NCBI GenBank assembly: GCA_002356455.1
Contig: AP017970.1
Location: 1-64,000 of the forward strand
DNA length: 64,000 nucleotides
Reading direction: 5' to 3'
DNA from: Fusobacterium varium
Lineage (GTDB): Bacteria > Fusobacteriota > Fusobacteriia > Fusobacteriales > Fusobacteriaceae
In this document: positions 31,425-38,467 of the stretch, one piece after another
Position numbering within the stretch: position 1 is the stretch's first letter
Layout of the letters: the number at the start of each line of letters is the position of its first letter
Notes under the pieces: model-generated
What the model was told of the DNA's origin: nothing
Seen by the model: only the letters and a program-made list of their open reading frames with translations
The model's database searches: none
Program-made: the position numbers and the translations under genes

Positions 31425-31582
31425 ATGTGTTAAAATTATTTTTGAGTAAGTATTTAAAAATAATAAGGCTACCTAAATTGAAAAAGTAATCTTAATCTGT
31501 AAATGCTTGATTTTTACTAAAATTTTAAATCAATAAGGCTACTTTTTGTAACAATAATTTAGTTGATTATATGGGGGAATTT

Positions 31583-32920
31583 ATGGGAGAGATAATTAAG
31601 TATCATAATGATATGAATAAAGTTAGTTTTGCAGGGTTTAAGGAAAAAGAATTAGACTTATTTTTTTCAATATGTCAAAAGATGAAAGAAAAAGGAACAA
31701 ATGAAGTTATATTTTCTTTTGCTGAACTTCGCCAAGTTTCACAATATACTAATAGAAGTGTAGAAAGGCTTTATTCTGATTTAGATAAAGTCTATAAAAA
31801 AATGTTAGAACTTAATTTAAAATATGAAGATGATAAAGAAATAAGAAGATTTGTTTTATTTAATAGATATGTTATCAAAAAGGAAGAGAAAATCATACTG
31901 ATAAAATCAAGTGAAGATTTTGAATATGTTTTAAATAATTTAATTGGTAATTTTACAAAATTTGATTTAATTGAATTTGTAAGTTTAAAAAGCATATATT
32001 CTAAGAATATGTTTAAGTTATTAAAGCAATGGGAAAGTAAAAAAGAACGTAAATTTGAAATAGAAGAATTTAGGCATTTACTTGCAATACCAGAAAAATA
32101 TAGAATGTCAATAATAGATTTAAAAGTTTTAAAACCAATTATGGCAGAGTTACCACGATATTTTCCTAAATTAAAACTTGAAAAAATTAAAACAGGAAGA
32201 AAAGTAACAGAATTGAAGTTTACTTGGAATTTTAAAAAAGAAAATATAGATATTGAAGAAACTCAAGAAGAAATTAAAATATCTGAAAAATTGAATAAGG
32301 CAATAGAAAAAGCTAAAAAGAATAGATTCATAACAAATCTTTTTACAGATGAAAATATAGAGAAACTTCTTAATAGATTTGAAGAAAATACACTTATAAA
32401 AGGTTTAAATGCTTGTTATAAGGATATACAGAAAGATATAAAGTCTTTAAATTATCTTATAAAAGCAATAGAAACAGCAGCAGGAAAGAAAACTAAAAAA
32501 ATTGTAGTTGAGAAGGAAAAAGAAACGGATCAGGAAAAAATCAAACCAGATTCAAAAGAAAAAGTACCTACAGTACAAAAAATAAAAGTATTAGAAAGTG
32601 AACTGAAAAAAGCCTACAAACACTATCTTAAAAAAAATAAATTATCTGATAATCCTTTCACTAAGAAAGCTTTTACAATGAATTATGAGATTGTTGAAAA
32701 AATTGAATTATCAGAAAAGCTAAAAAAGTTAATAAAAGAAAATTCTATAACAGAAGAAGATATAATAGATGGGATAAGTGCAGGATATGAAAGAGAAGAT
32801 GTTATTGAAATATTAGCAGATGATAGATCTTATAAACCATCGCCAGAAGAACTTCAAAAAGAATATGAAGAGTTCCTGGCATGGAAAAAATGGAATGAAG
32901 AAAGAGAAAAACAAAAGTAA
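31583..32920 (+). CDS. repB: Rep_3-family plasmid replication initiator
   Basis: A 445-aa initiator. Residues ~1-215 contain the two winged-helix halves of Rep_3 proteins: FAELRQVSQYTNRSVERLYSD in the first half, then SLKSIYSKNMFKLLKQWESK and EEFRHLLAIPEKYR in the second. A long charged C-terminal extension (residues ~225-445) is larger than in most RepB proteins. The ATG at 31583 has GGGGGAA 5 nt upstream; the ATG at 31571 has no ribosome site. It binds the iterons directly upstream. Confidence 0.9.
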   Translation: MGEIIKYHNDMNKVSFAGFKEKELDLFFSICQKMKEKGTNEVIFSFAELRQVSQYTNRSVERLYSDLDKVYKKMLELNLKYEDDKEIRRFVLFNRYVIKKEEKIILIKSSEDFEYVLNNLIGNFTKFDLIEFVSLKSIYSKNMFKLLKQWESKKERKFEIEEFRHLLAIPEKYRMSIIDLKVLKPIMAELPRYFPKLKLEKIKTGRKVTELKFTWNFKKENIDIEETQEEIKISEKLNKAIEKAKKNRFITNLFTDENIEKLLNRFEENTLIKGLNACYKDIQKDIKSLNYLIKAIETAAGKKTKKIVVEKEKETDQEKIKPDSKEKVPTVQKIKVLESELKKAYKHYLKKNKLSDNPFTKKAFTMNYEIVEKIELSEKLKKLIKENSITEEDIIDGISAGYEREDVIEILADDRSYKPSPEELQKEYEEFLAWKKWNEEREKQK

Positions 32921-33271: not shown

Positions 33272-33547
33272 TTATTTAATTTTTTCTGAAAGAGCTTTAC
33301 CAGCTTTAAATTTAACTGCTTTTTTAGCTTCTACTTTCATTTCTTTTCCAGTTTGAGGATTTCTACAAGTTCTAGCAGCTCTTTCTACAACTTCAAATTT
33401 TCCAAATCCAAGAAAAGTAATTTCTTCTCCTTTTAGTAATCCTTCTTCAATAACATTTAAAAAGGCAGCAGCTTTTCTTTCAGCGTCTGCTTTAGTTTCA
33501 AATTCTCCTTTTGCAAAGTATAAATCAATAAATTCTTTTTTAGTCAT
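33272..33547 (-). CDS. hup: HU-family DNA-binding protein
   Basis: A 91-aa histone-like protein. ITFLGFGKFEVVERAART and the arm motif CRNPQTGKEMKVEAKK are the HU/IHF signature, and the C-terminus KFKAGKALSEKI is standard. It dimerises and bends DNA; next to repB and parA it may assist replication or partition complexes. AGGAGGTC precedes the ATG. A second, divergent HU-like protein is encoded at 47328-47639. Confidence 0.95.
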   Translation of the reverse strand: MTKKEFIDLYFAKGEFETKADAERKAAAFLNVIEEGLLKGEEITFLGFGKFEVVERAARTCRNPQTGKEMKVEAKKAVKFKAGKALSEKIK

Positions 33548-33699: not shown

Positions 33700-33727
33700 A
33701 ACTAAGTCGACCATAGTCGAGTTAGTT
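33700..33727 (+). repeat. parS: parS-like site 1
   Basis: A 28-nt imperfect palindrome, half-sites AACTAAGTCGAC and GTCGAGTTAGTT around CATA. It is the first of four copies (also 33904, 34115 and 35323) flanking the parA locus. A TATAAT (about 33693) overlaps its left edge, so ParA/ParB binding could also repress transcription. Confidence 0.85.
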
Positions 33728-33794
33728 ATGAAAAATGAAAAAAATCATTTTTCGGGTAGACAAAACAAAAAAAATAATGTATAATAATTTTAGA

Positions 33795-33870
33795 TAAAGA
33801 AAAAAGCTATTTTGCTGGTAACAAAATAGCTTCTTAAATGATATAAAATATCATATGCTTTACATGATTA
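33795..33870 (-). ncRNA. Candidate small RNA between parS sites 1 and 2
   Basis: A minus-strand promoter TTGAAA-17-TATAAT (about 33873-33901) is followed by a small hairpin ATGATA/TATCAT. A strong 11-bp terminator AAGCTATTTTG/CAAAATAGCTT (33804-33832) with six T on the minus strand comes next. The predicted RNA is ~70 nt with no ORF. It could be a copy-control, partition or antitoxin RNA; no target was found by eye. Confidence 0.55.
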
Positions 33871-33903
33871 TATCATTCTTTATCTAATATTTCAATAGTA
33901 AAA

Positions 33904-33931
33904 AACTAACTCGACTATGGTCGACTTAGTT
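33904..33931 (-). repeat. parS: parS-like site 2
   Basis: The same 28-nt element as site 1, in inverted orientation. It lies 25 bp before the ATG of the 45-aa gene. Confidence 0.85.
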
Positions 33932-33956
33932 ACATAATTTAATGGAGAGTGATATA

Positions 33957-34094
33957 ATGAAACTATCAGAACTAAACAATTTTATAATGGAAATAATCAA
34001 AAAAGTAAATTCACATGAAAAAGAGATTGTAAGCTATGAAAAAGTAACTAAAATGAAATATTCAGAATTAGAATTACTATTACATGAGAATTAA
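33957..34094 (+). CDS. Small protein between parS sites
   Basis: A 45-aa hydrophilic helical protein (KLSELNNFIMEIIKKVNSHE, ending MKYSELELLLHEN). GGAGAG lies 8 nt before the ATG. It is boxed in by parS sites 2 and 3 and is probably co-transcribed with parA. No family is recognised; a small regulator of partition is a fair guess. Confidence 0.5.
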   Translation: MKLSELNNFIMEIIKKVNSHEKEIVSYEKVTKMKYSELELLLHEN

Positions 34095-34114
34095 TTCTCT
34101 TTATCATGGTAAAC

Positions 34115-34142
34115 AACTAACTCGACTATGGTCGACTTAGTT
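34115..34142 (-). repeat. parS: parS-like site 3
   Basis: The same 28-nt element and orientation as site 2, ending 25 bp before the parA ATG. Confidence 0.85.
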
Positions 34143-34167
34143 GTTTTATGATTAAAGGAGAGCAATA

Positions 34168-35322
34168 ATGGAAATTGAAAAGAAAGTAAAAGTTAATTTA
34201 AGCTATAAAAAAGATAAAAGATTGTCATTTGCTAGAATAAATTTAATAAAAGAATATTTAGAAGTTTTAGGTTTAAATGAAGAGAATAGAAATGTTGAAA
34301 TACTCTATGAAGAGAAAGTAATTCAATTAAAAAAAGTAAATGATAAATCTAAAAGGATAACTAGGGTAAGTTATGAAAAATCTAAAAATAATTTTAAGTT
34401 CTGTATTCCTCTACCAATAGTTAGGGAATGGGAATTAGAAAAAGAAGGAAACAATAATGTTATTATAGATAAAAAAGAAGATTATATAGAAATCAGGAGG
34501 GAAAAAATGACCATAGAGAGCAATAAAAAGAAAAAGGGGAAATTCTATATAGTAAAAGTTGCAAAAGGTGGAAGTGGAAAAACTTTAGTAGCTGTAACCC
34601 TAGCTTATTTATTAGCATTAATAAAAAAATACAGAGTAGCAATTTTTTCTACAGATACCCAAAACGACCATTTATATAATTTGCTTTCTTTAGAAGAAGT
34701 TGCTGAAAGAGGAAAGAAGATAATTAAAGTAGAAGATGATGGAGATATAAGTATAACCAAAGGATTAAAAACTTTGGTAATAAAAGAAGGAAATTATGAG
34801 GATTTTATAATTAATGCTAGAGAAAATTTAGATGTAATTCCTTTAGAAAGTGATATTTTTAATTTTAAAACTAGAAAAGAAATAAATGAATTTCAAAAAT
34901 TTAAAGAAAAATTTCCAATGTTTATAGAAAAATTAAAAGAAAATTATGATATTATAATAGGTGATGGAATACCAGTTTTAAATATAGATGACTTCGCTGT
35001 AAACTGTGCTGACAAAGTTATTATTCCAGTAACAGCAGATGAAGCGACAATAAAAGGAGCTATAAGAATGGTTCAATCAATAGGGGTAGATAAAATACAT
35101 GCTATTCTTGTAAATAAATATAGAAATACATCAACTAGGAATTATTTCTTAGATGAATTGAAAGAAAAAATAGGTAAAACAGATATAATTTTTCCAGAAC
35201 CAGTAAAGGAGCTATCTCAAATAGAGCAGTTGATAAAAAATAAGAAAACATTATTTGAAAGTAAAAGTAAATATTTGAAAGAAGCTCAAATTTCTTTTAT
35301 AGATATAGCAAAAGAAATGTAA
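34168..35322 (+). CDS. parA: ParA partition ATPase with N-terminal AbrB-like domain
   Basis: A 384-aa protein. Residues ~115-384 are a ParA/MinD ATPase: KGGSGKT deviant Walker A at 133-139 (Lys133 signature, Lys138), FSTDTQND, IIGDGIPVLNIDDFAV, and IIPVTADEATIKG. Residues ~1-112 are an added region whose end (CIPLPIVREWELEKEG, then VIIDKKEDYIEIRRE) looks like an AbrB/SpoVT swapped-hairpin DNA-binding fold. The fusion could bind the parS palindromes itself. An in-frame ATG at residue 114 has its own AGGAGGG, so a ParA-only form is likely also made. GGAGAG precedes the first ATG. Confidence 0.88.
   Translation: MEIEKKVKVNLSYKKDKRLSFARINLIKEYLEVLGLNEENRNVEILYEEKVIQLKKVNDKSKRITRVSYEKSKNNFKFCIPLPIVREWELEKEGNNNVIIDKKEDYIEIRREKMTIESNKKKKGKFYIVKVAKGGSGKTLVAVTLAYLLALIKKYRVAIFSTDTQNDHLYNLLSLEEVAERGKKIIKVEDDGDISITKGLKTLVIKEGNYEDFIINARENLDVIPLESDIFNFKTRKEINEFQKFKEKFPMFIEKLKENYDIIIGDGIPVLNIDDFAVNCADKVIIPVTADEATIKGAIRMVQSIGVDKIHAILVNKYRNTSTRNYFLDELKEKIGKTDIIFPEPVKELSQIEQLIKNKKTLFESKSKYLKEAQISFIDIAKEM
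34495..34509 (+). promoter_or_regulatory. Internal ribosome-binding site and ATG inside parA
   Basis: AGGAGGG at 34495-34501 is spaced 5 nt from the in-frame ATG at 34507 (codon 114), exactly at the junction of the AbrB-like and ATPase regions. It would yield a 271-aa ATPase without the DNA-binding domain. Confidence 0.6.
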
Positions 35323-35350
35323 AACTAAGTCGACCATAGTCGAGTTAGTT
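35323..35350 (+). repeat. parS: parS-like site 4
   Basis: A copy identical in orientation to site 1, starting one base after the parA stop and ending 25 bp before the next gene. Confidence 0.85.
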
Positions 35351-35375: not shown

Positions 35376-36125
35376 ATGAAAGAAGAAAAAAAAGTAAAAC
35401 AAACAACAGATTATTTTGGAGATTTATTAAAAGAAAGAGAAAATAAAAATAATAATAATGTAGAAATTAAAGAGATTATAAAAGAAGTTGAAGTAATAAA
35501 AGAGGTAGTAAAAGAAGTACCAGCAGAAAATAGTTTATGCAAAGTTCAAGAAATGAAAGAACTTTTAAAAATTGATAAAAATATTTTTGGTTCTCTAACA
35601 ACTGATAATGAAATAATAAATTTTTTAGAAGCAAAAACTTTTGAAATGACAAAATTAAAAACTAGTGGAACTTTATATTTTGGAAAAATTTTATCAGAAG
35701 TAGCGAAAGAATTAGGAAAAAAAGGAAGTCCAGATGGATTGTACACAAGATTTTTAGAAATAAATGGATTTAAAAAAGATTCTGCATTACAACATAGAAA
35801 AAAATATGAATTATGGGAAAATGCCAAATCAGATAGAACAAAACAAATTATAGCTTTATTATCTTTGAAAGATTGTGAAAAGCTTTATAAAGTACCAGAG
35901 TTACTAATAGATATTGAAGAAAATAAGACAATTACTTTAGAAGAGGTAAAAAATCTTTTAAGTCCATCAAAACAAATAACAGAAAAAACAGAAAATGAGA
36001 TAGAGGAATTTGACTTTAATATAATGCTAAGTTTTCAAGAAAAATTTGAAAAATTAGAAGAAAGTAAAAAACAAGAAGTAACAAAACTTTTATTGAAAAT
36101 AGAAAGAATTATGGAAGCAAATTAA
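35376..36125 (+). CDS. ParB-position partition partner, non-canonical
   Basis: A 249-aa protein following parA and preceded by AAGGAGGAC. The N-terminus includes YFGDLLKERENK and a Val/Glu/Lys-rich helix (EVIKEVVKEVP). The middle contains LYTRFLEINGFKKDSALQHR, which looks like a DNA-binding helical segment. There is no recognisable canonical ParB (CTPase, KorB-type) domain. By position and the flanking parS sites it should be the centromere-binding partner or adaptor of ParA. Confidence 0.6.
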   Translation: MKEEKKVKQTTDYFGDLLKERENKNNNNVEIKEIIKEVEVIKEVVKEVPAENSLCKVQEMKELLKIDKNIFGSLTTDNEIINFLEAKTFEMTKLKTSGTLYFGKILSEVAKELGKKGSPDGLYTRFLEINGFKKDSALQHRKKYELWENAKSDRTKQIIALLSLKDCEKLYKVPELLIDIEENKTITLEEVKNLLSPSKQITEKTENEIEEFDFNIMLSFQEKFEKLEESKKQEVTKLLLKIERIMEAN

Positions 36126-36129
36126 AAAA

Positions 36130-36162
36130 GGAGGTAATCTTAAAAAGGTTACCTCTCTTTTA
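36130..36162 (+). terminator. Terminator of the par operon
   Basis: GAGGTAATCTT/AAGGTTACCTC stem with a T-rich tail, 5 bp after the stop codon. Confidence 0.8.
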
Positions 36163-38005: not shown

Positions 38006-38467
38006 ATGTATGACAATAATAGTCTATCACATATAACATGGAATTGTAAATATCATATCATATTCGCACCAAAATATAGAAGGCAGGTAATATATGGAAA
38101 AATCAAAGGAGATATAGGGCAGATATTAAGAAAACTCTGCGAATTTAAAGGAGTAGAAATAATAGAGGCTAATGCCTGTAAAGACCATATACATATGTTG
38201 GTAAGTATACCTCCGAAAATAAGCATATCAAGTTTTATGGGATATTTGAAAGGGAAAAGTTCATTGATGATATTTGATAAACATGCAAATTTAAAATATA
38301 AATATGGGAATAGACATTTTTGGTGTAGAGGATATTATGTTGATACAGTAGGAAGAAATAAAGAAAGGATCGCAAAATATATAAGAGAACAGTTGCAAGA
38401 AGATATAGCAAATGATCAATTGACATTGAAAGAGTATATAGATCCTTTCGGAGAAAAAACAAACTAA
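38006..38467 (+). CDS. tnpA: IS200/IS605-family Y1 HUH transposase TnpA
   Basis: A 153-aa transposase. KYHIIFAPKYRRQVIYG is the usual start, DHIHMLVSIPP holds the HUH motif, and the GYYVDTVGRN segment has the catalytic tyrosine. Full length for the family and apparently intact. It transposes single-stranded DNA, often at replication forks. AAAGGAGG lies ahead of the ATG. Confidence 0.95.
   Translation: MYDNNSLSHITWNCKYHIIFAPKYRRQVIYGKIKGDIGQILRKLCEFKGVEIIEANACKDHIHMLVSIPPKISISSFMGYLKGKSSLMIFDKHANLKYKYGNRHFWCRGYYVDTVGRNKERIAKYIREQLQEDIANDQLTLKEYIDPFGEKTN

What the first reader, a model, noticed from the sequence alone, without database searches (positions are those of the whole stretch)
33700..35350. 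Four parS palindromes separating every unit of the par locus
The 28-nt element occurs at 33700, 33904, 34115 and 35323 (orientations +, -, -, +). Sites 2, 3 and 4 each end 25 bp before a start codon (45-aa gene, parA, parB-like gene). The sites could act both as centromere and as operators for every gene; the small-RNA gene fills the first interval.
Basis: partly seen in the sequence, partly recalled or inferred. Interest (0 to 1): 0.7.

Follow-up and report, generated by a model that had tools for sequence, protein, structure and literature searches.

The report
Four identical palindromes in plasmid par locus
A fusobacterial plasmid carries four identical 28-base palindromes, one before each part of its DNA-partition gene cluster; comparison with relatives suggests they are docking sites for the partition protein ParB, helping to pass the plasmid to daughter cells and perhaps to regulate the genes.

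Summary
Confirmed: AACTAAGTCGACCATAGTCGAGTTAGTT occurs exactly four times (33700+, 33904-, 34115-, 35323+), nowhere else in the 4.12-Mb genome, never in 100 shuffles. Sites 2-4 each end exactly 25 bp before a start codon. The locus, on a 68-kb plasmid contig, reads site 1, an antisense-RNA gene facing the operon promoter, site 2, 45-aa gene, site 3, parA, site 4, parB-like gene. About 40 related fusobacterial par loci show a family: 13 of 15 loci with this ParA architecture carry a palindrome scoring above every shuffle. Palindrome sequence tracks the parB-like protein (Mantel r=0.42, p=0.001), not the AbrB-like N-terminus of ParA (r=0.05, p=0.32). A relative lacking that N-terminus keeps the site, and two relatives carry a second copy 8-9 kb away on the same plasmid. 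So the ParB-like protein is the likelier binder, and the sites look like dispersed partition sites. 'Operator for every gene' is only partly supported: sites 3 and 4 lack a convincing promoter. Binding, repression and partition are untested. Closest working analogue: omega/parS of pSM19035, with other kinds of protein and site. New variant of a known kind.

The parts
33700..33727 (+). palindromic site 1, upstream of the operon promoter
   Evidence: exact match; ends 29 bp before the sense -35
33904..33931 (-). palindromic site 2, 25 bp before the 45-aa gene and 8 bp upstream of the antisense -35
34115..34142 (-). palindromic site 3, 25 bp before parA
35323..35350 (+). palindromic site 4, directly after the parA stop codon and 25 bp before the parB-like gene
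33757..33785 (+). sense promoter candidate TAGACA-17-TATAAT (11/12)
   Evidence: similar promoters in relatives
33790..33893 (+). structured leader RNA of the operon (-27 kcal/mol, z -5.8)
   Evidence: comparable leaders in relatives
33867..33895 (-). antisense promoter candidate TTGAAA-17-TATAAT with TG before the -10
33795..33861 (-). antisense RNA gene, about 65-70 nt, ending in the terminator hairpin 33835-33801
   Evidence: the promoter-terminator unit recurs antisense in 7 of 10 loci and sense in 0 of 10
33957..34094 (+). 45-aa gene of unknown function
   Evidence: the position is kept in relatives, with two unrelated protein types
34168..35322 (+). parA: Walker-type ATPase with a ~120-aa N-terminal AbrB/MazE-like region
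35376..36125 (+). parB-like gene (249 aa), proposed site-binding protein
   Evidence: family alignment; no Pfam match
36130..36156 (+). terminator-like hairpin closing the operon

Best explanation
The 28-bp palindromes are cognate binding sites of the parB-like protein encoded at 35376-36125. Shown: the sites are exact, unique to this locus, and across relatives follow ParB rather than the AbrB-like part of ParA. Inferred: a ParB dimer binds each palindrome through a helix-turn-helix-like core, the four occupied sites together form the partition complex (a dispersed parS), and the ParA ATPase moves that complex over the nucleoid. Also inferred: ParB at sites 1 and 2, which bracket the convergent sense and antisense promoters, feeds back on operon transcription, and ParB at sites 3 and 4 may act as a roadblock inside the operon. 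The antisense RNA made between sites 1 and 2 adds a second, RNA-level control on the leader of the 45-aa gene. The AbrB-like part of ParA, if it binds DNA, probably uses a different site.
For: Exact fourfold recurrence, absent from the rest of the genome and from 97 other genomes of the phylum. The related class CTAAGTCGCAYNNRTGCGACTTAG occurs in 61 genomes only beside ParA/ParB of this type: once at each of six loci in the same genus, and three times on the 89.6-kb sibling contig of this genome. 13 of 15 AbrB-ParA loci have a par palindrome above all 60 shuffles. Site similarity correlates with ParB identity (r=0.42, p=0.001; partial 0.44) and not with the ParA N-terminus (r=0.05, p=0.32; partial -0.16). 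The window is the telling case: the nearest ParA N-terminus, L041 (45%), has the site GGGACAGATTTGTCCC, while the nearest ParB, L038 (41%, core 51%), shares ten consecutive half-site bases. The ParB tree groups the window with the AACTAAGTCG set (93/91), and forcing it with L041 and L049 is marginally rejected (p-AU 0.048). L014 lacks the AbrB part and the small gene but keeps a similar ParB and the site of its relatives. L029 and L044 lack the AbrB part and still have palindromes before parB. Second sites lie about 8-9 kb from par on the same plasmid in G009 and G005, between non-par genes.
Against: No binding, repression or stability data. The parB-like protein matches no Pfam family, no member of its family matches a ParB domain, and its model is too poor to use (pLDDT 39), so the DNA-binding core is inferred from the alignment only. 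The sites used in the Mantel test were picked by eye (the objective scan agrees except at L041). The correlation falls to r=0.27, p=0.023 when the near-identical AACTAAGTCG relatives are collapsed. Placing the window ParA N-terminus with the AACTAAGTCG group is not rejected (p-AU 0.215). L043 has no significant palindrome.
Confidence: 0.58

Rival explanations
1. AbrB-ParA binds the palindromes and represses its own operon, as type Ia ParA proteins do with their N-terminal helix-turn-helix.
For: ParA has a ~120-aa N-terminal region with weak AbrB/MazE similarity (3 of 12 members match PF04014, best E 0.0011; top PDB matches are MazE/AbrB at E 0.08-0.14). Type Ia ParA proteins autoregulate (PMC9178275). 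In the same-genus loci L020, L039 and L053 the only site lies between a promoter-like sequence and parA (for L020, L039 and L054).
Against: Site sequence does not follow the N-terminus. L014, L029 and L044 lack the domain but have palindromes.
Confidence: 0.15
2. The palindromes are only operators of the parB-like regulator, and the real centromere lies elsewhere.
For: All four sites are in the regulatory gaps of the operon. L020, L039 and L054 have one site, between a promoter-like sequence and parA.
Against: The Cetobacterium distal sites lie near no par gene. Sites 3 and 4 have no significant promoter. No other comparable repeat family stands out in the region.
Confidence: 0.17
3. The palindromes act as RNA hairpins between cistrons (attenuation, processing or stability).
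For: The transcribed copies fold strongly (z -4 to -7), sit just 5' of ribosome-binding sites, and in L020, L039 and L054 are followed by a run of T.
Against: Site 1 and the first sites of L038 and L040 lie upstream of the promoter candidate. Copies are identical in both orientations, so the RNA carries a G-G or a C-C mismatch depending on the copy. Distal copies are outside the operon.
Confidence: 0.06
4. The 45-aa protein binds the palindromes.
For: It is encoded between sites 2 and 3, and the position of a small gene is kept in relatives.
Against: L014, L020, L039 and L053 have the site but no small gene immediately upstream of parA. Two unrelated small proteins occupy the position.
Confidence: 0.04

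Closest known systems
pSM19035 delta/omega/parS (Streptococcus pyogenes)
   Different: Omega is a ribbon-helix-helix protein and binds arrays of 7-bp heptads; here the sites are single 28-bp palindromes, the ParB-like protein has no known family, ParA has an extra N-terminal region, and an antisense RNA is present.
Type Ia ParA systems (P1, F)
   Same: ParA of about 380 aa with an extra N-terminal domain, followed by parB (PMC9178275).
   Different: No helix-turn-helix was detected; the N-terminus is AbrB/MazE-like at best, and site evolution does not follow it.
Type Ib systems with small ParA (TP228 ParFG, chromosomal ParAB)
   Same: Relatives without the AbrB region have 230-240-aa ParA and a ParB-like partner with a palindromic site.
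   Different: No ParB or RHH domain match in the partner.
pMF1 parCAB (Myxococcus)
   Same: A small gene sits upstream of parA in the same operon (PMC7843461).
   Different: ParC is an acidic three-helix protein that binds ParA; no similarity to the 45-aa protein was tested.

Membership tests
Type I (Walker) ParABS partition locus | ParA ATPase with deviant Walker A motif | tested here: met
   AAA_31 E=3.4e-18, CbiA E=2e-10; KGGSGKT motif
Type I (Walker) ParABS partition locus | site-specific DNA-binding partner encoded next to parA | tested here: inconclusive
   partner gene adjacent and conserved and sites follow it, but no known DNA-binding domain found
Type I (Walker) ParABS partition locus | cis-acting parS on the same replicon | tested here: inconclusive
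   candidate sites confined to the par replicon; function not tested
Type I (Walker) ParABS partition locus | ATP-dependent nucleoid binding and ATPase stimulation by the partner | not testable with these tools
   needs biochemistry
Type Ia ParA | N-terminal helix-turn-helix that binds the operator | tested here: not met
   no HTH match; AbrB/MazE-like at best
Type Ib ParA | ParA of about 200-250 aa without an N-terminal domain | tested here: not met
   384 aa here; some relatives do fit
pSM19035 omega/parS | arrays of 7-bp WATCACW heptads | tested here: not met
   the 28-bp element has no WATCACW and is a single palindrome
Canonical ParB (CTPase) and parS | ParB_N/HTH domain; TGTTTCACGTGAAACA site | tested here: not met
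   no ParB domain match in 16 members; the site differs, and no exact canonical parS was found in the genus
AbrB/MazE fold in the ParA N-terminus | swapped-hairpin AbrB domain | tested here: inconclusive
   weak profile hits; model pLDDT 43

The most novel reading that the evidence does not exclude
A fusobacterial partition system in which an unclassified ParB-like protein uses one palindrome both as a dispersed centromere and as a regulatory element before every cistron, on an operon whose leader is also controlled by a dedicated antisense RNA, with the AbrB-like part of ParA recognising a separate sequence.
Probability: 0.3. Interest if true: 0.65.

Novelty: new variant of a known kind. Interest (0 to 1): 0.5.

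Why it matters
Partition is little described in Fusobacteriota: two of my literature searches showed no study of it. The comparison names the unannotated partner gene (deposited as 'hypothetical protein') as the likely centromere-binding protein, gives its candidate site in about a dozen loci, and offers a direct specificity test, since this genome appears to hold two plasmids with related but different sites. A par operon under antisense-RNA control would also be unusual.

Tried and rejected
Single-sequence structure models of the ParB-like protein and of the ParA N-terminus had pLDDT 39 and 43 and were not used for fold searches. Searches of viral contigs and phages for the site and the proteins found nothing. 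A DNA-level search of plasmids gave only short ParA matches. The genome-contig scan gave only distant ParA-like hits. The PDB profile search with the ParB-like family found no relative. Rfam gave no match at or above gathering score to the leader or antisense RNA. A chance or low-complexity origin of the repeats was rejected.

Full report
Observation. The 28-nt element AACTAAGTCGACCATAGTCGAGTTAGTT is present four times without a mismatch, at the stated places and orientations. It is absent elsewhere in the genome and from the other 97 genomes of the phylum that were searched; shuffled sequence never contains it. Sites 2, 3 and 4 each end exactly 25 bp before an ATG, with the ribosome-binding site in between.

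Setting. The window is part of a 68,063-bp contig with a Rep3-type initiator gene at 31571-32920, taken here as a plasmid. The operon reads: promoter candidate 33757-33785, structured leader 33790-33893, 45-aa gene, parA, parB-like gene, terminator 36130-36156. The first interval also holds a minus-strand gene for a short RNA: promoter candidate 33895-33867 and a strong intrinsic terminator 33835-33801, giving an RNA antisense to the leader.

Family. I fetched about 40 related par loci and mapped genes, palindromes and leaders. Of the 15 AbrB-ParA loci scanned objectively, 13 have a palindrome in non-coding par DNA that exceeds all 60 shuffles. The exceptions are L043, which has none, and L041, where the scan picked the leader hairpin (p 0.033) while a repeated GGGACAGATTTGTCCC-type site lies elsewhere in the locus. 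L020, L039 and L053 are close relatives, so the independent count is somewhat lower. Site number varies from one to four, so the four-site 'separator' layout is special to this plasmid. A further plasmid, pKKCOM1330A of F. polymorphum, shows the same order of palindrome, leader, small gene, parA, parB.

Which protein binds. Three lines point to the ParB-like protein. First, pairwise site similarity correlates with ParB identity and not with identity of the ParA N-terminus; the ordering survives every leave-one-out (ParB 0.33 to 0.53, ParA N-terminus -0.07 to 0.19), but the ParB correlation weakens to 0.27 (p=0.023) when near-identical relatives are collapsed. Second, the window locus looks mosaic: its ParA N-terminus is nearest to L041 and its ParB to L038, and all four sites are of the L038 kind. 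Tree support for this is moderate: the ParB side is favoured (p-AU 0.048 against grouping with L041 and L049), the ParA side is not decisive (p-AU 0.215). Third, L014 has no AbrB-like region and no small gene but keeps the site and a similar ParB.

Centromere or operator. The Cetobacterium site TGTAACACATGTGTTACA occurs in only five of 61 genomes; in G009 and G005 it occurs twice on the par plasmid, once at par and once about 8-9 kb away between unrelated genes. That fits a partition site better than a pure operator. Operator action at sites 1 and 2 is plausible from their distance to the sense and antisense promoter candidates (29 and 8 bp). At sites 3 and 4 no promoter stands out from chance, so 'operator for every gene' is not shown.

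Antisense RNA. A promoter-to-terminator unit antisense to the leader is found in 7 of 10 loci with a small gene, in the sense direction in none, and in 4 of 1000 shuffles. The window and its sibling plasmid differ in the hairpin loop (CUGGUAA against ACCGCAA). No Rfam family matches. What the RNA controls is inferred only.

Known systems. In pSM19035 the partition sites overlap three promoters (PMC9499535), which is the closest precedent for the proposed way of working, but protein and site are of other kinds. Type Ia ParA proteins use an N-terminal HTH (PMC9178275), not found here. I therefore file this as a new variant of a known kind, with the partner protein unclassified. Everything about function remains untested.

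Noticed in passing
window 33272-33547 (-): An HU-like gene lies beside par; a 93% identical copy lies near par on the sibling contig (L038 4990-5262), and another near par in L027.
   Followed up: partly
L020, L039, L053, L054, L056, L057: AbrB-ParA/ParB pairs with a single palindrome occur in other genomes of the genus, at least one on a 1.9-Mb contig; the promoter spacer carries a shared TCATACCAAA stretch that could be a separate operator.
   Followed up: partly
12 genomes of the genus: No strong DnaA (PF00308) match was found, only weak matches to ~250-290-aa proteins, and no exact canonical parS. Could be real, or an effect of masking or of the search.
   Followed up: no
L033, L034, L045, L046: Relatives without the AbrB region carry G+C-rich palindromes inside the parB-like gene at nearly the same place, about 1180-1210 bases after the parA start.
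   Followed up: no
L040 395-414 and 2552-2571: A 20-base piece of the leader is repeated downstream of the parB-like gene.
   Followed up: no
window 38006-38464 (+): IS200-like transposase gene (Y1_Tnp, E=6e-41).
   Followed up: no
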